From positions 67,036,118 through 67,100,117 of the forward strand of contig CM060190.1 of assembly GCA_030549335.1 (NCBI GenBank): DNA of 64,000 nt. Reading direction: 5' to 3'. Of the stretch, positions 11,727-38,500 are shown in pieces; positions within the stretch are counted from its first letter, which is position 1; the number at the start of each line of letters is the position of its first letter. The DNA comes from Pontederia crassipes (Eukaryota; Streptophyta; Magnoliopsida; Commelinales; Pontederiaceae). A program made the translations under genes and the position numbers. A model generated the notes under the pieces. It did no database searches. It worked only from the letters and a program-made list of their open reading frames with translations, and was not told where the DNA came from.

Positions 11727-14490
11727 CGTGAAGTCAAAGTTGTTGTCCGCCATGCAAGTGTGCAGGGGCATCTAGCACAAGGAGACAACATTCCTAGCCG
11801 CCCTCAAGTTCCATGAAGATCAAAGGACTTCTCCTGTTCCAGAGGAAGTTCAAAAGCTCCTGGCTTTGTACAAGGACATCATGCCCCAGGAGTTATCCAA
11901 GAAGCTTCCTCCCGACCACGCCATTGAATTGGTGCTCGGTGCGCGGCCGCCCGCCATGGGACCATATAGGATGGCACCCCCTGAGTTGGCTGAACTTAGA
12001 AAACAATTGGATGAACTCTTGAAGACAGGATTCATAAGGCCTTCAAAGGCACCTTATGGAGCTCCTGTTTTGTTCCAAAAGAAGCATGATGGCACATTGA
12101 GAATGTGTATTGACTATAGGACTTTGAACAAGTTGACGGTGAAGAACAAATATCATATTCCTTTGATTGAAAATTTGTTTGACAAGTTGGGGAAGGCAAG
12201 GGTCTTCTGAAAGTTGGATCTAATGTCAGGGTATTGGCAAGTGAGGATTGCCAAAGATGATGAAAAGAAGACCACATGTGTTACTCGATATGGAGCATAT
12301 GAGTTTCTTGTTATGCCCTTTGGGCTTACTAATGCACCTGCCACCTTTTGTACTTTGATGAACAAGATCTTTCATCATTTGTTGGATAAATGTGTGGTTG
12401 TTTACTTGGATGATATTGTTATCTATTCTGAGAATCTTGCAGATCATGTCAAACATTTGGAAGAGGTGTTCAAGTTGTTAAGGGAGAATGAAATCTTTGT
12501 GAAGGAAGAGAAGTGCTCCTTTGCTCAACCTGAAGTAATGTTCTTAGATCATCATATCAAGGCTGAAGTCATAAGTATGGACAAGAAAAATGTTCGTGCA
12601 ATTGAAGAATGGCAGCCCCCTTCGAGTGTTCCTGAGTTGAGGTCATTCCTAGAGCTAACCGATTACTATAGGAGATTTGTGGAGGGATATTCCAGGAGGC
12701 CAACACCTCTCACTGATCCCTTGAAAAAGGACAGACCTTGGCATTGGATGGACTCATGCCAAGAGGCCTTTGAAGACCTCAAAGGTGCTATAGTTCGAGA
12801 GCCATGTCTGAGGCTACCCGACTATGACCGACCCTTTGAAGTTCGCACCGACGCATCCGACTTTGCATTAGGAGGTGTCCTTAAGCAAGAAGGTCACCCC
12901 GTGGCCTTTGAAAGCAAGAAGTTCAGCGAGGTGGAGCGCAATTATCCAATGCATGACAAGGAGATGTCGGCCATAGTGCATTGTTTACATACTTGGCGAC
13001 ATTATCTTTTTGGAAGTTCCTTTGTTGTAAAAACTGTTAATGTGGCTACTTCTTACTTTCAAAATCAAAAGAAGTTGACTCCTAAATAGGTGCGATGACA
13101 GAACTTCTTGACCGAGTTTGACTACCAATTGGAGTACAAGGTGGGGCGCACCAACGTAGTTGCGGACGCCCTAAGTCGGAAGGCTCAACTCTCGGCCATG
13201 TGCAGTGTGAAGGGGACTTCCAAGACCAAGTGCGAGAAGGCTTGAGTCATGACTCCAGGGCTGTGGAGATCCTTCGTTTGTTGAACGAGGGAAAGACTCG
13301 AAAGTTTTGGAAGAAGGAGGACCTGCTGTTCGCAACGGGGCGCCGACTGTACGTGCCCCATTGGGAAGGTCTTCGACGTCGCATCCTCAAGGATTGCCAT
13401 GATTCCTTGTGGGTTGTACATTCAGGAATGACCAGGACCTTGTCGTTAGTGGAAGATGACTATTATTTGCCACAAATGCATAGAGGCATATGTGAGGATT
13501 TGCCTCAAATGTCAGCAGGACAAGGTGGAGCAACTCAAACCAACGGGTCTCTTGGAGCCTTTGTCGGTTCCTGAACAGCCATGACAAGTTGTAACCATGG
13601 ACTTCATCAACGTTCTACTAAGATCAGGAGGCTTCGGGTCAATTATGGTGGTAATTGACAAGTTTTCCAAGTACGGAACATTCATCCCAACCCCTAAGCA
13701 TTGTTCGGCCGAGGAGGTGGCCAAACTTTTCGTCAACAACGTGGTGAAGTTGTGGGACATACCTGAGGTAATTGTGAGTGACAGGGATCCTCGCTTTACA
13801 GGTACATTTTGGAGGGAGTTGTTCAAATTCCTGGGGACTGAACTACGCTTCTCAACGGCCTTCCATCCTCAAACGGACGGCCAAACGAAGAGAGCAAATC
13901 ACCTTTTGGAAATCTATCTTCGACACTTTGTGGATGCTAACCAAAAGAATTGGGCAAAGCTTCTTGATATTGCTCAATTCTCCTTCAATATGCAGAGAAG
14001 CGAGGTTACACAAAGGAGTGCATTCGAACTAGTTACTGGTTGGCAACCGGTGACTCCAACAGCCTTGGCAGCAAGGTATGCAAGAAGGTGTCCTGCAACC
14101 TTCAAGGTCGCACATCATTGGCAAGAAACCCTAAAAGAGTCCAAGATAGGAAGAGGAGGCATCTAGGTTGGTGATCAAGTGTTGGTGAAGTTGAGGGCTA
14201 GACAGTTCAAGGCCCTTCGAAACTTGCACCAAGGACTCATGAGAAGATATGAAGGACCTTTCACCATCTTGAAGAGGATAGGCAAGGTGGCCTATCGTGT
14301 CGATCTCCCTACTCGTCTTCGACAGTTGCATCCTGTCTTTCATGTAAGTATGCTGAAGACATACCATGCTGACTTAGAGGAACCAGGACGTGCGATCGAA
14401 GTTCGAAGGTCGGTCAACATCATATCATCTTCCCCGACTACAGGTGAAGGCCAGCAGTTGCCAAGGTCGGCAACGTCTTCAGTGGGGGAG
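11727..14490 (+). mobile_element. pol region (RT, RNase H, integrase) of the outer gypsy element (fossil part)
   Basis: Resumes after the nested insertion. Reverse transcriptase spans about 11860-12450, including the YLDDI catalytic box near 12400, followed by RNase H-type sequence (TDAS motif near 12850) and the connection to integrase. The integrase core lies at about 13597-14030 with the DFI, SDRDPRF and HPQTDGQT blocks typical of gypsy elements. The C-terminal part ends in an HPVFHVS block near 14330. I see no clear chromodomain after it. Broken, with several breaks. Confidence 0.85.
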
Positions 14491-16401: not shown

Positions 16402-16446
16402 ATCACCCTCTCTAAGGGACTCAACATCCTCATTGAGTGGCCCGTG

Positions 16447-17792
16447 TGTCACGCCCCATATGTGCAGGATGTCCCAGGACAAATCCAGTCGTCCCAGAAG
16501 CTTCCTCTGGACATCATATGGCGAGCAGGCCATATGGCCAAAGTATTCTTGAGGAGAAGAAGGCTTTGGGACGTGAAGACTTGGCAAGCAGGACGCCCGG
16601 TATGGCGGGCGCAGCGCACGGCGGACATGTTCGTCCCAGGACGTGTGCAGAACGTCCAGGGGACACATGAGGAGCATTCTGAGGTTCAGGCTTCGAGCAG
16701 GAGGCTTGGCATCACCATCCAGGTGGGATGGGACGGGCAGAATCACCGTGGGACGGTGAGGCCTGCCCGGCGCGCAGGAGGCGCGTACCGAATGCACACT
16801 TTGGCGTTTTGGGGCAGTATCGTCCCAGGATCAAAGTACCTCGTCCCATGCATCCCTCAGGTGGAGGGGAGTCAGGAGAACATCGCCGGCCAGGAGAATT
16901 CTCATGGAGGAGAATTCTGGGACGCTCGAAGTTGCGGAGCGGTGACTAGGCGCACTGCACCAGGACAGGAGGTTCTGGGGCAGTCTGCAGGGCCAAGCAA
17001 GCACAGGTGCACTAACCAGATGGCGAGGAGGTCATCAGGACGCCGAACTCTTGCGGAGAAGACCGGCGGCAGTGCATGGCAGTCATATGCAGTGACTGGC
17101 CAGAAGTCTGGGACGCAGCAGTGAGCGGCTGGGACGCAGTGGCGGGCACCAGTGGCCAGACGGACTTGGCACCTTGGCGGGAAGGCTTGAAGGCGCTCAG
17201 AAGTGTTCCAGAATATTAGAGATGGCGGGAAGGTCATCCAGGGGTTTTGGCTTTGGAGGGAGCATTTGAATTCAAAGGGGAACATTTGAATTCAAATGAA
17301 GGTGGCAGTTACCAGGGAGGTAGTTACACATCCCTCTTGTATATAAATACCCATGTGTTGTAGTCATTTGCATGAAGGGAGTGCCTGATGTATTCAGAAG
17401 GAGTCTGATGTAGTCAGGAGGTGTGTAGTAGTGCAAGTGTGATGTAGTGTAGTGCAGTGGGCAGCAAGTCCTCTGCAGTGCAGTGTAGTGCACAGCAGAG
17501 GGGCAGTGGGTGTTTGAGTGTGGGACGGCCAGATGGGCAGACCTTGGTAGGCTGTTGAGAGCCATTTTGTAAACCAAAGGTCTGTCATCTGGGCGGCAAG
17601 AATTGAGGCTTAATAAAAGAGGCTTTCCCTGTATCTTCTTGTGTGTCTAATGTTGTTCTTATGTGCATGAATTCTGTGGAGTGGTCGAATGCCCTCTGCA
17701 GCGTGTTTCTTGGAGGCTGACTGGACAGGCTCGTCGAGGAGAAGTTCAGTGCCGCACACCCTTACTTCTAGGTGAAAAATAAGGGCGTGACA
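16447..17792 (+). repeat. 5' LTR of the LARD-like element, 1346 bp
   Basis: GC-rich U3; TATA box tatataaata at 17340-17349, an AATAAAA signal near 17613, and an end at GGCGTGACA. The PBS for initiator tRNA-Met begins at 17795. The TATA box and polyadenylation-type signal suggest it could still be transcribed. Confidence 0.9.
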
Positions 17793-20319
17793 AGTGGTAT
17801 CAGAGCCCTGGTTCGAGCAGGAATCTGGGTGCACACCGACAGAACAACGAGATCAGCCACACTTCAACGAAGAAGGAAAGTGCTTTGGCCATGCTTTGGC
17901 CCGAGATAGTGTTCACTCCAGGAGGGCGTGGCACTAGGCAAGGCAGTCCGAGTCACTCAGCAACCCAGGAAGAACAGGAGGTTCTTCCCCTGAGGCGCGC
18001 AGGTCTCAGGACTCAATCCCTGTCCCTTGAAAATGGAAGTTCAAGGGGACACTTGCAGAAGTCGAGGCGCTGGAGGAGCAGGCCACGACCAGCCCTGGTT
18101 CAGGTGGAACCTGGGGCACACTCCCTTGAAGTCTGCATCAACAGTGGCATCCCATGGAGTGGGGTGCCTGGCGGCGGATTTGGTGGGGGAGCAGACCCTC
18201 CAAATGCTGTGGCCACTCGACTTCAGTGGCCAGGACGCAAGGATGCAGCAACCAGAATGTGCAGTGGCCAATTCTGGGGCATGCGTATGCCCTGGATGTG
18301 GCAGCCACATCCACTTCTGGCACATGCGGACGCTGGACGAACAGGATGTTGTGGGGCAACATCTAGTCATCCCCGACTTCGGCCAGGAAGATGTCAGGGT
18401 TATGGCAGGCGGCCATGACTCTGGGGCGCAGGCAGGTGGCCTTGTCCCTGGGACGATGGAGGCAGTCCATGTCCCAGAATCTTCTTCAAGTAAAAGTGGT
18501 GCGGATCATCACTGAAGTCAGCAGACATGACGAGGCGGCTATGTTCCTGGACTATGGCAGACGGCCATGTCCCAGGGACTCCTGCAGGATGTTCGTGTCT
18601 GGGGGTCATGGCAGGCGGCCATGTCCCTGGGATGTTCGTGGCAGACGCATTTCTTGGGACTGATGGCAGGCGGCCATGTCCCAGGATCTGCAGAGGAGTG
18701 CAGATCACAACCGACAGGTCCTGTCTTGGGACTTATGGCAGGAGGCCATGTCCCTGGATTTGCAGAGGAGTGCGGATCAAGGACTTTGTCTTGGGACGTT
18801 GGCAGGAGGCCATGTCCCAGGGTCTGCCGGCAGTGCTCGGTGCAGGCCATGGTGGCCATCGATGAGTGGTGGCCAGGGTGTTGCCCTCGGACAGCAGGGT
18901 AATGCCCACTGATCAGTTCGAGGAGGAACTGGGTCAGGAAGGATCCAAGCAGTGAGATGCGGTATCTTCACTGCCTGGTGCAGTCTGGACAGCAGCCCGG
19001 TGCAGCGGCCATGTCCAGGCCATGGTGCAGGGGCGTGGCGCGTAGGCCACATCCCTAGGACGCTCTCAAGGAGGCTGCGTCCTGATGAAGTCTGCATCGA
19101 CAGTGGCATCCCAAGGAGTGGGGTGTCTGGCGGCGGATTTGGTAGGGGAGCAGACCCACCAGATGCTGTGGCCACTCAGTGGCCAGGACGCAGGGATGCA
19201 GCAACCAGAAGGCACAGTGGCCTATTCTAGGGCATGCGGATGCCCTGGATGTGTCGGCCACATCTCCTTCAGAAGCATGCAGTGCTGAACGAGCAGGACG
19301 TTGTGGGACAACATCTGGGTCGGTAGGAGCAGACTACTGACCATCCCAGACTTCGGCCAAGATGATGTAGAGGGTATGGCAGGCGGCCATGACCTTAGGA
19401 CGCAGGCAGGAGGCCTTGTCCCTGGGACACTAGAGTGCAGTCCATGTCCCAGAATCTTCATCGAGTGGAAGTGGTGCGGTTCATCACTGAAGTCTACAGA
19501 CATGAGGAGGCAGTCGTGTCCCTGGTCCATGGCAGGCGGCCATGTTCCTAGGACTCTTGCGGGATGTTCATGTCTGGGGGCCATGGCAGGCGGCCATGTC
19601 CCTGGGAGGCTCACAGCAAGTGCATGTTTTGGGACCATGGCAGGCGGCCATGTCCCAGGATCTGCAGAGGAGTGCAGATCACAACTGACAGGTCCTGTCT
19701 TGAGACTTATGGCAGGAGGCCATATCCCTGGATTTGCAGAGTAGTGCAGATCATGGAGGACCTTGTCTTGGGACGATGGCAGGAGGTCATGTCCCAGGGT
19801 CTGACTGGCAGTGCGCGGTGCAGACCACAGCGGCCATCGGTGCATGGTGGCCAGGGTGTTGCCCTCGGACAGCAGGGTAATACCCACTGATCAGTTCGAG
19901 GAGGAACCTGATCAGGAGGATTCTGGGCAGTGAGATGTGGCATCTTCACTACCTGGAGCAGTCTGGACAGTGGCCCGGTGCAGCGGCCATGTCCAGGTTA
20001 TGGCGTAGGGGCGTGGCGCGCAGGCCACATCCCTGGGACGCGAGCGAGTAGGCTGTGTCCTAATTAGAAGGAAGGCAGTTCAGCGAGGGTGACATTCTTG
20101 CAGAGGTTCCAAAGTATCTCAGTACAGGGCGAGTAGGTTCTGGAAGGGATGACAGGGAGCAGCAGGTGGCCTTATAATACGAGAAGGTATTAAGGCCATG
20201 TTCAGGAGCGAGGAGGTTCTTGAACGAGTCCAGGTTGAAGGCTTCCTTCAGAGCAGATCCAGACATCGGCGGCACAGTGCAGACATTGCCGGGACGGCAA
20301 TGGTTTGAGTGGGGGAGAA
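17793..20319 (+). mobile_element. non-coding internal domain with ~975-bp tandem duplication and stem-loop array
   Basis: After the PBS the domain consists largely of two diverged tandem units, about 18120-19083 and 19084-20064, offset by 959-978 bp. Each unit holds six copies of a word like atggcaggcggccat, at 18402, 18554, 18608, 18663, 18735 and 18799, and again at 19376, 19529, 19583, 19637, 19709 and 19776. The word can fold into a 5-bp stem (atggc/gccat) with a 5-base loop and is usually followed by gtccc. The long open frames here are by-products of GC-rich repeats. A role as an RNA packaging or dimerisation signal is a guess. Confidence 0.75.
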
Positions 20320-21666
20320 TGTCACGCCCCATATGTGCAGGATGTCCCAGGACAAATCCAGTCGTCCCAGAAGCTTCCTCTGGACATCATATGGCGAGCA
20401 GGCCATATGGCCAAAGTATTCTTGAGGAGAAGAAGGCTTTGGGACGTGAAGACTTGGCAAGCAGGACGCCCGGTATGGCGGGCGCAGCGCACGGCGGACA
20501 TGTTCGTCCCAGGATGTGTGCAGAACGTCCAGGGGACACAGGAGGAGCATTCTGAGGTTCAGGCTTCGAGCAGGAGGCTTGGCATCACCATCCAGGTGGG
20601 ATGGGACGGGCAGAATCACCGTGGGACGGTGAGGCCTGCCCGGCGCGCAGGAGGCGCGTACCGAATGCACACTTTGGCGTTTTGGGGCAGTATCGTCCCA
20701 GGATCAAAGTACCTCGTCCCATGCATCCCTCAGGTGGAGGGGAGTCAGGAGAACATCGCCGGCCAGGAGAATTCTCATGGAGGAGAATTCTGAGACGCTC
20801 GAAGTTGCGGAGCGGTGACTAGGCGCACTGCACCAGGACAGGAGGTTCTGGGGCAGTCTGCAGGGCCAAGCAAGCACAGGTGCACTAACCAGATGGCGAG
20901 GAGGTCATCAGGACGCCGAACTCTTGCGGAGAAGACCGGCGGCAGTGCATGGCAGTCATATGCAGTGACTGGCCAGAAGTCTGGGACGCAGCAGTGAGCG
21001 GCTGGGACGCAGTGGCGGGCACCAGTGGCCAGACGGACTTGGCACCTTGGCGGGAAGGCTTGAAGGCGCTCAGAAGTGTTCCAGAATATTAGAGATGGCG
21101 GGAAGGTCATCCAGGGGTTTTGGCTTTGGAGGGAGCATTTGAATTCAAAGGGGAACATTTGAATTCAAATGAAGGTGGCAGTTACCAGGGAGGTAGTTAC
21201 ACATCCCTCTTGTATATAAATACCCATGTGCTGTAGCCATTTGCATGAAGGGAGTGCCTGATGTATTCAGAAGGAGTCTGATGTAGTCAGGAGGTGTGTA
21301 GTAGTGCAAGTGTGCTGTAGTGTAGTGCAGTGGGCAGCAAGTCCTCTGCAGTGCAGTGTAGTGCACAGCAGAGGGGCAGTGGGTGTTTGAGTGTGGGACG
21401 GCCAGATGGGCAGACCTTGGTAGGCTGTTGAGAGCCATTTTGTAAACCAAAGGTCTGTCATCTGGGCGGCAAGAATTGAGGCTTAATAAAAGAGGCTTTC
21501 CCCTGTATCTTCTTGTGTGTCTAATGTTGTTCTTATGTGCATGAATTCTGTGGAGTGGTCGAATGCCCTCTGCAGCGTGTTTCTTGGAGGCTGACTGGAC
21601 AGGCTCGTCGAGGAGAAGTTCAGTGCCGCACACCCTTACTTCTAGGTGAAAAATAAGGGCGTGACA
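20320..21666 (+). repeat. 3' LTR of the LARD-like element, 1347 bp
   Basis: Almost identical to 16447-17792. It has the same TATA box (about 21213) and polyadenylation-type signal (about 21484) and ends GTGACA, followed by the cgtg flank and the rest of the TRIM internal domain. Confidence 0.9.
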
Positions 21667-21729
21667 CGTGGGCCGGATTCGTTTCCCACATGATTCAAAT
21701 GAGCACGCGAGGTAGGCTCTGATATCTTT

Positions 21730-25176: not shown

Positions 25177-26583
25177 TCACAAGCTTAAACTGCTGCTGCC
25201 AACTGAGCTGCCTTTCTTGCTCAAATTAGGAGAGTAGTACTCGAGATACCACCGGACGAATCTCTTGAGGCCAGTGGTCAGGTCAGTCGTGGGCTGGTAC
25301 CCGAGCTCCTTGTGCGCAAGACTGATGTTAGCATGAGTGTATTGCACATCACCATTCCGCGGCATCTTGACGACCTTGCGGATGGCCTTGACCTTCAGAA
25401 GCCGCTCAAGGATGGAAACAAGCTCAGACACAGGGACCGGGGATGTGTTGCCAAGATTGTAAACCTTGAGCGGCGCATTGCCGCGCTTCTTGCCGCCGCT
25501 GCCAGTGCTCTTGCCAGCATTATCCAGCGCTGCGACGCAACCCCTCACGATGTCATCAATGTAGGTGAAATCACGTGCTACGGTGGCATGGTCGGGGCCT
25601 TCGAAGATTGAAATCGGCTTGTGGCGGAGAATGTCCTTGGTGAAGAAGAAATAGGCCATGTCAGGGCGCCCCCAGGGGCCATAGACGGTGAAGAATCGGA
25701 GCCCGGTGATGGAGAGGCCGTAGATGTTGTTGTAGACATGAGCGATCTCCTCGCCGGCCTTCTTGGTGGCAGCGTAAAGGGAGGCGGGGCGGTCTGTGCG
25801 GTCGGCCTCGGAGAAGGGGACGTGGGTGTTGAGCCCGTACACGGAGGACGAGGAGGCCCAGACGACAGCCGGCTGGGGGTCGGCGGCCTTGGCAGCTTCG
25901 AAGATGGACACGAGGCCCGCGACATTGGAGTGGACGTAGGAGGCGGGATTGGTCATGGCATATCGAACGCCGGCCTGCGCCGCGAGGTGCATGACGTGGC
26001 TGAACCGCACGACATGGAAGAGCTTGGCGAGGAGGGGCCCGTCGTTGATGTCGCCCTCGACGACGAAGACCCCGGCGCGCTCCAGGAGGGCCTGGCGGGC
26101 GCGCTTGAGGGACTGCTCGTAGTAGTCGTTAAAGTTATCGAGGCCGACGACGCCGTCGCCGCGCCGCCTGAGAGCGGCGGAGACGTGCGTGCCGACGAAT
26201 CCCGCGGCGCCGGTGACGAGGACGGTCATGCGGCCGCCGTGCCGGACGCGTGCCGAGCCGCGCACGCGCTTCTCCCAAGCGGCCCCGCCCCACGTCTCGG
26301 TGGCCAGGGACCGGCGCCGCTGCCGCTCCCCGGAGGACGAGAGAAGGGACTGCGCATCGGCGCCGGCGCCGGCCGCGGCGGAGGAGGGCTGGCGAGGGGA
26401 GAGGTGGAAGAAGGCGAGGAAGAGGACGAGGGCGCATAGGGACCAGAAGAGGAGCTTCGAGAAGAGCGGGGAGGAATGGTGGAGGCGGAGGAGGAGGTGG
26501 CGGGGGTGGTACATGTGGTGGTGGTAGTGCGGCTTGTCCATCTTGAACTTGCCCGGCGTCGACGGCACGCTGTCTAACATCAT
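25177..26583 (-). CDS. GAE: UDP-glucuronate 4-epimerase, Golgi type II membrane protein
   Basis: Converts UDP-glucuronate to UDP-galacturonate, the donor for pectin backbone synthesis, in the Golgi lumen. The intronless frame gives 468 residues from an ATG at 26583, as usual for plant GAEs; the next codon is also ATG, and the MLDSVPSTPGKFKMDK start matches the family, so the 19 codons open upstream are not used. A membrane anchor lies at about residues 44-60 after a His-rich cytosolic tail, followed by a variable stem. The extended SDR domain has GAAGFVG (125-131) for NAD, a Ser cluster (244-247) and the catalytic YxxxK (Tyr270, Lys274). The C-terminal FVRWYLEYYSP motif is present, followed by a Ser-rich tail. 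It looks intact. The isoform number cannot be assigned. Confidence 0.95.
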   Translation of the reverse strand: MMLDSVPSTPGKFKMDKPHYHHHMYHPRHLLLRLHHSSPLFSKLLFWSLCALVLFLAFFHLSPRQPSSAAAGAGADAQSLLSSSGERQRRRSLATETWGGAAWEKRVRGSARVRHGGRMTVLVTGAAGFVGTHVSAALRRRGDGVVGLDNFNDYYEQSLKRARQALLERAGVFVVEGDINDGPLLAKLFHVVRFSHVMHLAAQAGVRYAMTNPASYVHSNVAGLVSIFEAAKAADPQPAVVWASSSSVYGLNTHVPFSEADRTDRPASLYAATKKAGEEIAHVYNNIYGLSITGLRFFTVYGPWGRPDMAYFFFTKDILRHKPISIFEGPDHATVARDFTYIDDIVRGCVAALDNAGKSTGSGGKKRGNAPLKVYNLGNTSPVPVSELVSILERLLKVKAIRKVVKMPRNGDVQYTHANISLAHKELGYQPTTDLTTGLKRFVRWYLEYYSPNLSKKGSSVGSSSLSL

Positions 26584-27060
26584 CCCCCCCTCAATAATGA
26601 TATCGACCGAATTCTGAACAATTCCAAAAATTCGACCCAACTCAGATCAATTCATAAAGACAAAAATGAAAATCCAGAATCATTATCAAACAAGAAGTTG
26701 ATCGAAAAATCAGATTGCAGATGCAGGCTGTAAATCAAAATGTCACTTATTGGATGATGGGAAAAGAAGATTTCTAGATAAAGGAGAAAAAAAAAGGGGA
26801 GTAGGAAGAAAAGGAAACAAAAAAACAGGAAAGAGAGGAGGAAATGGAAGGTTTCAGAAGAAAAGGATTGTGATGGAATGTGGAGAAGAGAATCTAATAC
26901 TTAGCCCCCTCCTGCTCCTTCCACCTCCTCTTCCTCTCTCATCACTTTTGTTTCCTTTTGAAATGAATGGACCCCTCGAGGAGTGTACTGTGCCCACACT
27001 GCCTCCCCTCTCTCTCTCCCCCCTCCCTCCTCTGTATCTATAACCCCTCAGTGACGATGG
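26584..27060 (-). promoter_or_regulatory. GAE leader and core promoter
   Basis: Upstream of the GAE start the plus strand is strongly pyrimidine-rich at 26910-27030 (ctctctctccccc), so the minus-strand leader has GA-rich runs. A TATA-like word, ttatagata on the minus strand (27035-27043), would place transcription start near 27005 and give a leader of about 420 bases. This is a prediction; no start site is visible directly. Confidence 0.45.
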
Positions 27061-35520: not shown

Positions 35521-38500
35521 ATGTCGGCCATCTCCGCCTCCGTCAAGATGCTGTCCTCGCCGCCGATGGCCGTAGCCGCCTTTCGATCTCCGACTGAGAA
35601 GCCTTCCTCGTCCTTCGCGCTACCGATCACCTCCTCCCCGCCCGGCGTCCTGCGCTCCGCGACGCCCAGGACCTATCGCTTCAAGCCTTCCTCGTCCTTC
35701 GCGCTACCGATCACCTCCTCCCCGCCCGGCGTCCTGCGCTCCGCGACGCCCAGGACCTATCGCTTCGGTCGTCCGTTGCTGGCCGTCTCCGATGTGCTCA
35801 GCGGCCAGAACAACGTCAGCTCTTCCAATTCTTCCCCGTCCCATCCGGTGAGTGATTCGGTCGAGCTCTCAAAAATCTCTATTTCTCGTGATCACTGCTA
35901 TAAAATGTGGTCTTTCTGCAAGTTCTCTGCACAAGGTCCAATCTGGATTGGAATTTCACAACAAAAGTTTTTTTTTTCTTTTTCGTCCCTGCTTCCAACT
36001 TTCCGGTCGGGCCCTTTTCATTGTTCTCTCACCCAAAATAAAAGTTCGGTGTTGTCCTAACCAAAAAATTCATAGAATAACCTTTCTTCCGTTTCTTGCC
36101 TCAAGTCGAATCTTTCTTTCGATTCCCCTGGAAAAATGTCTGTCTTCTTAACCATGTTCTGATATTTTATCTCGATATAGTTTCCCCATAATGACTACAG
36201 TATTCAGGTTATCAAAATAAGATTTTGCAAGTAATTGTTAACTCAATATCCTTTTTTTTACCTAGTTGAACTGTTATTTGATACTCAAACTTATGAGTTA
36301 TGGCCATCGTAGCTTCCTTCGGTGGACTAACCCTTTGGGCATCTCATGGCAGTCGTCGGTGGCGCGGCAGGAAGCTTTAGAGGTTTACGAGGACATGGTT
36401 CTGGGTCGCGCTTTTGAGGACATGTGCGCCCAGATGTACTACAGAGGGAAGATGTTCGGTTTTGTCCACCTCTACAATGGACAGGAGGCAGTTTCCACTG
36501 GTTTCATCAAGCTCCTGGAACTCCGGGACTCTGTAGTCAGCACTTACCGCGACCACGTCCATGCCCTTAGCAAGGGCGTCCCTGCCCGTGCTGTGATGGC
36601 AGAGCTCTTCGGGAAAACCACTGGATGCTGCCGCGGTCAGGGTGGTTCCATGCACATGTTCTCTCGGGAGCACAACCTTCTCGGTGGCTTTGCATTCATT
36701 GGTGAAGGAATTCCTGTAGCTACTGGTGCGGCTTTTTCAGCCAAGTACCGCCATGAGGTTCTCAAGGAGTCGAACCCTGGAGGCCTTGATGTCACTGTTG
36801 CCTTCTTTGGTGATGGAACTTGCAATAATGGGCAGTTCTTCGAGTGTCTCAACATGGCTCAGCTTTGGAAGCTGCCTATCATTTTTGTTGTGGAGAACAA
36901 CTTGTGGGCAATTGGGATGTCACACTTGAGATCAACCTCAGATCCAGAGATTTGGAAGAAGGGACCTCCATTTGGAATGCCTGGGGTGCATGTGGATGGC
37001 ATGGATGTACTGAAGGTGCGTGAGGTTGCTAAGGAAGCAATTGCAAGGGCCAGGAGAGGAGAAGGTCCAACCCTTGTTGAGTGTGAAACTTATCGGTTCA
37101 GGGGCCACTCCCTTGCTGATCCCGATGAGCTCAGAAAACCTGGTAAGTTTTGTTTAAAAGTTGCATGAAATGTTAGAACAATATAAAGGCAATTGTATTT
37201 CTGTTGCTTAATGTTCCTTAAAAGCATGCATTTGTTGTTCATATGATTAAAATGTCAACTTATACCCCTAAAAAGATCAACACCTGAGACGACTAGAAGG
37301 ATGGAGTTCAAGACTTTTATCGCGCGGTGGTAGGTTGATCTTAGTCCGCTCAGTGCTATTAGCAATTCTTGTGTGTTTCATGTCCCTCTTTCAGATGCCT
37401 ATTGGTGTTTGTAATCGCATTGATGTCTTAAGGAGGAGGTTTTTTTTAAAGCATTCTGGTAGCTCCATCTAGGGTCAGAAGTGTGCAGGACACAATCAGA
37501 GGGTGGGTTGGGTTGGGTGTCCGAGAGCTTCGAAAGATGAATGACGCGCTCTTGTCAAAATGGATATACCAATTATTGAGCCCGCAACAAGATTTTTGGT
37601 CGGTTATCATACATGTCTGCCATGGTACTTTCCCACTTGACAATAGGACAACATCATCCTAGGGCCATTCGTCTTGCTGGAAGGCTATATTGTCAGTCAC
37701 CGCAAAGGTTTGATGATTCTTCTCCCCATCCTTAGGATTGGATACAATGTTTCACTTCTGGATGCTTGGGTCTCCCCTTTCGATGTCTTTTTCACGATTA
37801 GCTGCCTTAGCACAAGATAGACAGGCTAATTGTTGGTCAGAATCCTTGTTGTCTAATGGTATTTGGACACCTCTCTTTGCCTCAGCGCTATCAGTTCAAC
37901 GAGTAGACGACCTCCTCTGCCTATTAGAGAGGTTGGATGGGTTAGCATGGACTGCAGGTCAATTCTCAGTATATAAATTGCTGGATGAGGAGAATAGGAC
38001 GAATGATGGTGAATTGGGATTGACGACTGAAAATTCCTCTCCGTATTAAAATCTTTGCATGGTTTTTCAGACGTCTAGAGCGGAATGGCGTCCTATGATC
38101 CATGTAGCCGACCCCACCTAGTGGGATAAGGCTTTGTTGTTGTTATTGGTTTTCAGACGTCAACAGCTGCCAACTAAAAATCTTATATCACAATGGTACC
38201 CTGCAATAAGCATCACGTGCCCGTTGTGTGATGATAGTGATGAGAATCCGGATCATCTCTTTTTTGGTTGCGCTGTGGCAAGGGCTGTATGGAGGGAGGC
38301 AGGATGTCACCTCTTGAACACAACTTCAGCACATAATTTTTGGAGAACATGCCGATTTGGAGGTCATTAACGAGATATCATCATCTATACATCGAAGCAA
38401 CAGCAAACAATTCAATTGTGTGCTTGTGGTCCATATGGTCTCAACGCAATGGAGTCACATTTAGAGGCGAACGGATCTACATTGAAAACGTTGTGGCATC

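What the first reader, a model, noticed from the sequence alone, without database searches (positions are those of the whole stretch)
17793..20319. Non-coding young retroelement with a duplicated array of stem-loops
The internal domain of a very young LTR element holds no recognisable protein. Twelve copies of a word near atggcaggcggccat sit in two sets of six with the same internal spacing and an offset of 974-977 bp. The stem (atggc/gccat) is mostly kept while loop bases vary (aggcg, agacg, aggag), and one change (gtcat) still allows a G-U pair. That pattern suggests selection on RNA shape. I propose, as inference only, that the array is a packaging or dimerisation signal that lets the RNA use another element's proteins.
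Basis: partly seen in the sequence, partly recalled or inferred. Interest (0 to 1): 0.72.

Follow-up and report, generated by a model that had tools for sequence, protein, structure and literature searches.

The report
Non-coding retroelement with conserved hairpin array
A young plant jumping element that seems to make no protein carries two sets of six small hairpins that have changed less than the DNA around them; a gag-carrying relative has a single similar hairpin and prefers the same kind of insertion site, which suggests the array may be a working signal shared with that relative.

Summary
In detail: 12 words near ATGGCNNNNNGCCAT in two sets of six, offsets 974-977 bp, inside a young LTR element (16447-21666, LTR K 0.0045) without recognisable protein. 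Corrections: the "duplicated array" is a fusion of two lineages (43-unit tree). The stem arms are constrained: 26 changes against 66-68 expected (0 of 5000 resamples); the loops less so overall (31 against 43-47). This pattern comes from hairpins 1-4; in hairpins 5-6 the loop is the more conserved part. Covariation inside the 5-bp stem is not found (13 of 26 changes keep pairing, 13.7 expected; no compensatory pair). The arms outside it match best within each hairpin on the + strand (2 of 720 assignments as good), not on the - strand (166 of 720). A gag-protease family shares LTR ends, PBS, PPT region and a single hairpin at the matching place. Insertions fit SCC-NN-GGS with a 4-bp CNNG duplication in 12 of 12 with both flanks; 7 of 11 gag-family 5' flanks read CCNNG. 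Best reading: a LARD-like parasite that multiplied a cis-acting hairpin also present in its gag-bearing relative. Packaging is inference; a DNA-binding palindrome array is the main rival.

The parts
16447..17792 (+). 5' LTR, 1346 bp; TATA-like tatataaata at 17340, AATAAA at 17612 (read by eye)
   Evidence: Boundaries; sequence; K 0.0045 to the 3' LTR.
17793..17806 (+). AG plus primer binding site TGGTATCAGAGC (initiator Met tRNA type, recalled)
   Evidence: shared with a gag-bearing family.
18127..19085 (+). Unit 1: six hairpins; groups with single-unit lineage A
19086..20068 (+). Unit 2: six hairpins; groups with single-unit lineage B (L021, L023)
   Evidence: junction cctga|TGAAG with 3-base overlap TGA.
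18402..18416 (+). Hairpin 1 of unit 1
18554..18568 (+). Hairpin 2 of unit 1
18608..18622 (+). Hairpin 3 of unit 1
18663..18677 (+). Hairpin 4 of unit 1
18735..18749 (+). Hairpin 5 of unit 1
18799..18813 (+). Hairpin 6 of unit 1 (TTGGC variant breaks one pair)
19376..19390 (+). Hairpin 1 of unit 2; positional counterpart of the single hairpin of the gag-bearing relative (both follow GGTAGGAGCAGACTACT)
19529..19543 (+). Hairpin 2 of unit 2
19583..19597 (+). Hairpin 3 of unit 2
19637..19651 (+). Hairpin 4 of unit 2
19709..19723 (+). Hairpin 5 of unit 2
19776..19790 (+). Hairpin 6 of unit 2 (GTCAT variant, G-U pair kept)
20309..20319 (+). Polypurine tract gtgggggagaa (read by eye)
   Evidence: Sequence; with the LTR start it matches L041, 73 bp at 83.6%.
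20320..21666 (+). 3' LTR, 1347 bp
16443..16446 (+). Target site duplication CGTG, 5' copy; target CCC-GT-GGG
21667..21670 (+). Target site duplication CGTG, 3' copy

Best explanation
The element is a young, non-coding (LARD-like) LTR retrotransposon of the Ty3 (gypsy) type in a plant genome. It shares LTR ends, primer site, polypurine region and insertion-target preference with a family that carries gag and protease, so both probably use the same particle and integrase in trans. The non-coding interior matches short pieces of the region between protease and 3' LTR of that family, where a single hairpin sits. In the non-coding lineage the hairpin exists in 6 or more copies per unit, and one fusion of two lineages gave 12. 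The words are held by purifying selection, which in an element without genes can only act in cis. I think they work as RNA hairpins in the + strand transcript, most likely as repeated binding sites for Gag that help the RNA enter the relative's particles. Shown: anatomy, fusion, constraint, the relative's hairpin, shared target preference. Inferred: direction of the hairpin's multiplication, RNA rather than DNA as the working form, Gag as the ligand, packaging as the benefit.
For: Stem columns 0.43 parsimony changes per column, loop 1.03, rest 1.22; 0 of 958 shifts of the stem mask as low. Stems 26 observed against 66-68 expected in context-matched columns, 0 of 5000; still low without the two-unit copies (0.33 against 1.13) and in columns with few gaps (0.45 against 1.34). 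In hairpins 1-4 the loop, inside the word, changes at 0.87 of expectation and the stem at 0.28, which homogenisation of whole words does not explain. First array folds better than shuffles: + strand z -6.9, - strand z -4.1. Outer arms fit their own partner on the + strand: 2 of 720 assignments as good, the true one counted; 1-2 of 120 with any one hairpin left out; - strand 166 of 720. Relative: gag E 1.3e-14, protease 1e-9; homology at LTR end plus PBS (80 bp, 80%), PPT plus LTR start (73 bp, 84%) and two internal pieces; one hairpin GACATG(G/A)C-N6-GTCATGTC. Over 30 places found by pattern one pair is G-T in 24, A-T in 5 and broken in 1, where the array has G-C. Shared target CC-NN-GG.
Against: No compensatory change inside the 5-bp stem and no excess of pairing-keeping changes. 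In hairpins 5-6 the loop (0.15 of expected) is more conserved than the stem (0.65), against a pure stem constraint; loops overall are also below expectation (121 and 357 of 5000 as low). The outer-arm test rests on six paralogous hairpins; in the five single copies tried it gives 50, 95, 66, 2 and 6 of 720, and an ungapped Watson-Crick dyad count also favours own arms (13 of 720). Neighbouring stretches (z -4.7, -3.4) fold about as well relative to shuffles as the second array (-3.6). The array begins about 0.6 kb after the PBS, not in the leader. No RT or integrase source was found. No expression or binding data.
Confidence: 0.38

Rival explanations
1. The constrained unit is a DNA palindrome ATGGC-N5-GCCAT bound by a dimeric host protein; the array is an internal enhancer or insulator, like the repeated Su(Hw) sites in the gypsy element of Drosophila (recalled).
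For: Both half sites are conserved, spacing N5 is nearly fixed in the array, and pairing is not kept preferentially. Ungapped Watson-Crick dyad matches of the arms are better than swapped (13 of 720).
Against: The gag-bearing relative has N6; outer arms fit their own partner on the + strand but not the - strand; 97 of the 100 listed genome matches of the core lie in this family (208 matches in all, 4 in the reversed control), so it is no common host site in that form.
Confidence: 0.28
2. Tandem repeats of the kind that arise before the 3' LTR of plant Ty3 elements by template switching; the words stay alike through exchange between repeats and have no function.
For: About half of the recently active Retand elements have tandem arrays in that region (PMC11963269, abstract); hairpin number varies and the 12 arose by fusion; in hairpins 5-6 the loop is conserved too.
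Against: Stems at about 0.4 of expected changes, 0 of 5000 resamples and 0 of 20000 random block sets; loops of hairpins 1-4 at 0.87 of expected.
Confidence: 0.21
3. Loop-loop dimerisation signal in the strict retroviral sense.
For: The 12-hairpin class joins two lineages, which needs two RNAs in one particle or DNA recombination.
Against: Loops AGGCG and AGGAG cannot pair with themselves; the array is not in the leader (sequence).
Confidence: 0.06
4. Remnant of a repeat-coding protein gene, sense or antisense.
For: Long open frames exist on both strands, up to 221 aa antisense.
Against: Spacings 55, 64, 67 and 152 are not multiples of three; 23 ORFs without Pfam match above cut-off.
Confidence: 0.02

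Closest known systems
LARD elements (Sukkula and kin)
   Same: LTRs, PBS, PPT, multi-copy, no gag or pol found; [quoted passage not shown]
   Different: Interior dominated by one repeated hairpin with measured constraint; short homology to a gag-protease family; strict insertion target. Smaller than the barley LARDs (their size recalled).
[quoted passage not shown]
   Same: Tandem repeats in the interval before the 3' LTR of plant Ty3 elements (PMC11963269, abstract and section 11 part 1 of 2).
   Different: Here in an element without recognisable gag or pol, with the words conserved; no antisense TRP28 among the 11 antisense ORFs scanned.
TR-GAG elements (name recalled; seen only in listing)
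   Same: The relative L041 has LTRs, gag and protease in about 2.9 kb, with no further + strand ORF of 150 aa.
   Different: It is the relative, not the element in the window.
Target palindromes of plant LTR elements (Tos17 ANGTT-TSD-AACNT; PMC6911290, passages)
   Same: Palindromic target preference.
   Different: That survey reports a weak preference, with other base patterns; here 12 of 12 sites fit SCC-NN-GGS with a 4-bp CNNG duplication.

Membership tests
LARD | Two LTRs, PBS and PPT | tested here: met
LARD | No coding capacity in the interior | tested here: met
   All 23 ORFs of 60 aa or more overlapping the interior, no Pfam match above cut-off.
LARD | Structurally uniform multi-copy family | tested here: met
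   8 places with two units (one an array of three); 12 other fetched places (L017-L028) show single units, some with stubs or partial second copies.
LARD | Conserved RNA structure | tested here: inconclusive
   Words conserved, outer arms matched on + strand, no covariation in the inner stem.
LARD | Mobilised in trans by a coding partner | tested here: inconclusive
   Gag-protease family shares ends and target preference; RT and integrase source not found.
Retroviral packaging or dimerisation signal | Location in the 5' leader (recalled) | tested here: not met
   Array begins about 0.6 kb after the PBS.
Retroviral packaging or dimerisation signal | Self-complementary loop for kissing (recalled) | tested here: not met
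   Loops AGGCG and AGGAG.
Retroviral packaging or dimerisation signal | Binding by Gag | not testable with these tools
   No binding data.
Retand | Reverse transcriptase of the Retand lineage | not testable with these tools
   No RT in the element.
Retand | Antisense TRP28 ORF before the 3' LTR | tested here: not met
   11 antisense ORFs, no Pfam match.

The most novel reading that the evidence does not exclude
A non-coding retroelement became a better parasite by multiplying, from 1 to 6 or more and then 12, a Gag-recruiting RNA hairpin shared with a gag-bearing relative: an evolved array of packaging sites. The 12-hairpin class is one clade and among the youngest copies (the single-unit copy L021 is as young).
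Probability: 0.23. Interest if true: 0.78.

Novelty: new variant of a known kind. Interest (0 to 1): 0.5.

Why it matters
How gene-less LTR elements get their RNA into another element's particles is, to my knowledge (recalled), largely open in plants. This family offers a countable candidate signal (1, 6 or more, 12 hairpins), measured constraint on it, and a relative whose Gag can be tested. The shared target SCC-NN-GGS gives a fingerprint for finding the integrase that serves both families.

Tried and rejected
Inner-stem covariation: tested and not found. Coding remnant: 23 ORFs, no Pfam match above cut-off. Known RNA family: none at E 0.1. Fresh duplication of one array: rejected by the tree. 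Long array hairpin in L041 with 3 mismatches: none; a single divergent hairpin was found by alignment. C-to-T against G-to-A in stems (10 against 4; rest 259 against 309) leans towards G-U tolerance but is small and confounded by methylation context. Literature: searches listed no title that names an amplified conserved hairpin array in a LARD or a strict SCC-NN-GGS target; I saw listings, and passages or sections of four papers (PMC11963269, PMC7215508, PMC12786077, PMC6911290), so absence is not shown. PMC7004042 was not opened (one search failed). Kalendar 2004, Macas 2009, Chaparro 2015, the Su(Hw) array and LARD sizes are recalled.

Rows dropped or limits: one search scored 40 of 107 candidates and one search scored 40 of 68; three further unit places seen were not fetched. 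Of 55 unit segments 4 exact duplicates and 7 under 500 bp were left out, giving 44; one truncated segment (L013 start) was dropped, giving 43. LTR pairs of L022 and L024, one of L025 and one of L028 were misaligned or not a true pair and set aside. Target sites: 12 insertions with both flanks; half sites L010, L014, L019, L025 and L032 also fit, L035 does not; the script also printed chance matches and read L011 in the wrong direction, and these were ignored. Gag-family flanks: 22 listed, 11 preceded by the polypurine tract, 11 used: 7 CCNNG, 3 CCNNA, 1 neither; some may be solo LTRs. admits only places within 3 mismatches of the typed pattern; some of its 30 places match L041 only over this segment and are not known to carry gag. 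Of 208 core matches only the 100 listed could be placed.

Full report
WHAT IS THERE. The window lies in a 1.13-Gb genome, a plant by its gene content (recalled). The interval 16447-21666 is an LTR retrotransposon: LTRs of 1346 and 1347 bp with ends TGTCACGCCC and GGGCGTGACA, 6 substitutions and 1 gap between them (K 0.0045), PBS TGGTATCAGAGC at 17795, a polypurine tract before 20320 and a 4-bp duplication CGTG. All 23 ORFs of 60 aa or more that overlap the interior were scanned without a Pfam match above cut-off; no Rfam match at E 0.1. The twelve palindromic words are real, in two sets of six with offsets 974-977.

FAMILY AND FUSION. The genome search scored 40 of 107 candidates and returned 48 matches. 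Eight places, one an array of three, carry two units; twelve other fully fetched places (L017-L028) show single units, L023 with a 194-bp stub and L028 with a second, partial one. In a tree of 43 unit copies (55 segments, 12 dropped) unit 1 of the two-unit elements groups with single-unit elements such as L018, and unit 2 with L021 and L023; each set of two-unit copies forms one group. So the 12-hairpin class comes from one fusion of two lineages, joined with a 3-base overlap. Its LTR divergences are 0-0.0045; usable single-unit pairs give 0.0007-0.045. L042, L045, L048, L049 and L050 show extra hairpins.

CONSTRAINT. Parsimony on that tree gives 0.43 changes per stem column, 1.03 per loop column and 1.22 elsewhere; none of 958 shifts of the stem mask is as low, while 402 of 958 are as low for the loop mask. 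Against columns matched by trinucleotide or methylation context the stems have 26 changes where 66-68 are expected (0 of 5000); the loops 31 where 43-47 are expected (121 and 357 of 5000). The stem deficit stays without the two-unit copies and in columns with few gaps. It is uneven: in hairpins 1-4 stems have 0.28 and loops 0.87 of expectation, in hairpins 5-6 stems 0.65 and loops 0.15. So the word as a whole is conserved, and the stem-over-loop pattern holds in four of six hairpins.

RNA OR DNA. Of 26 stem changes 13 keep pairing, 13.7 expected, and no double compensatory change is seen in 1260 pair cells (1222 unchanged, 14 changed on one side and paired, 24 broken). Covariation in the 5-bp stem is not shown. 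The 10-base arms outside the word do match: with the core fixed, each hairpin's upstream arm folds best with its own downstream arm on the + strand (2 of 720 assignments as good, the true one counted; 1-2 of 120 with any one hairpin left out). The - strand gives 166 of 720 and an ungapped dyad count 13 of 720; in five single copies the + strand test gives 50, 95, 66, 2 and 6 of 720. First-array RNA folds at z -6.9 on the + strand and -4.1 on the - strand; two neighbouring stretches give -4.7 and -3.4 and the second array -3.6, so the whole element is structure-prone. I read this as leaning to an RNA hairpin without excluding a DNA palindrome.

THE GAG-BEARING RELATIVE. A search for the LTR end plus PBS lists 33 exact places, 12 of them outside the known copies. 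Four of those twelve were fetched: all show gag-like frames by eye and share the last 42-66 bp of the LTR at 76-81% plus the PBS. L041 covers one whole: gag (PF03732, E 1.3e-14), protease (PF13975, 1e-9), about 2.9 kb inside; two antisense ORFs gave no Pfam match, and the rest was not searched for RT. It matches the window element at LTR end plus PBS, at PPT plus LTR start, and at two short internal pieces. After the shared piece GGTAGGAGCAGACTACT, which in the window lies before hairpin 1 of unit 2, it has one hairpin, GACATGGC-GTGCAG-GTCATGTC. Among 30 genome places found by pattern (some match L041 only over this segment) the stem columns have 12 differences in 420 cells, loop and flank 37 in 600, and 9 of the 12 keep pairing; one pair is G-T in 24, A-T in 5 and broken in 1, G-C in the array. 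These copies are related, so the counts are not independent.

SHARED TARGET. In 12 of 12 insertions of the non-coding family with both flanks the target reads SCC-NN-GGS with a 4-bp CNNG duplication. Of 11 gag-family 5' flanks, 7 read CCNNG, 3 CCNNA, 1 neither. A survey of plant LTR elements reports only a weak palindrome preference (PMC6911290, passages). The shared preference is the best evidence that both families use one integrase; its source was not found.

MECHANISM. In an element without genes, selection among copies can only act in cis. I propose that the hairpins act in the RNA as repeated binding sites for the relative's Gag. The steps from constraint to Gag binding and packaging are inference. 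The main rival is a DNA palindrome array bound by a host protein; repeat turnover without function is the next.

VERDICT. A LARD-like element (three features met, two inconclusive) with an unusual repeated and constrained hairpin: a new variant of a known kind.

Noticed in passing
16443-16446 and 21667-21670; L009, L012/L013, L015-L018, L021, L022, L026-L028: Strict insertion target SCC-NN-GGS with 4-bp CNNG duplication, 12 of 12 insertions with both flanks; shared preference in the gag-bearing family.
   Followed up: yes
L034 and L040, around position 1500: Primer binding site duplicated around a copy of a tRNA 3' end (CTGATACCA): looks like a primer-derived snap-back insertion in the gag-bearing family (tRNA identity recalled).
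   Followed up: no
L012 and L013 (C7:69424200-69442000): Tandem array of three interiors and four LTRs with 4389-bp period, nearly identical copies.
   Followed up: partly
16447-17792 and 20320-21666: Both window LTRs lack about 400 bp near the 5' end that other two-unit copies have (L009 LTR 1830 bp), with an 11-bp overlap at the break.
   Followed up: partly
L041:3920-3970: A second zinc-knuckle-like stretch after the protease, outside the listed ORFs (read by eye).
   Followed up: no
window 12214-13089 and 865-1485: Ty3-type RT-RNase H fragment and a protease fragment of other elements.
   Followed up: no
window 25177-26640 (-) and 36266-37168: ORFs that look like a UDP-sugar epimerase and a pyruvate dehydrogenase E1 alpha exon (recognised from memory; ORFs, no family search).
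   Followed up: no
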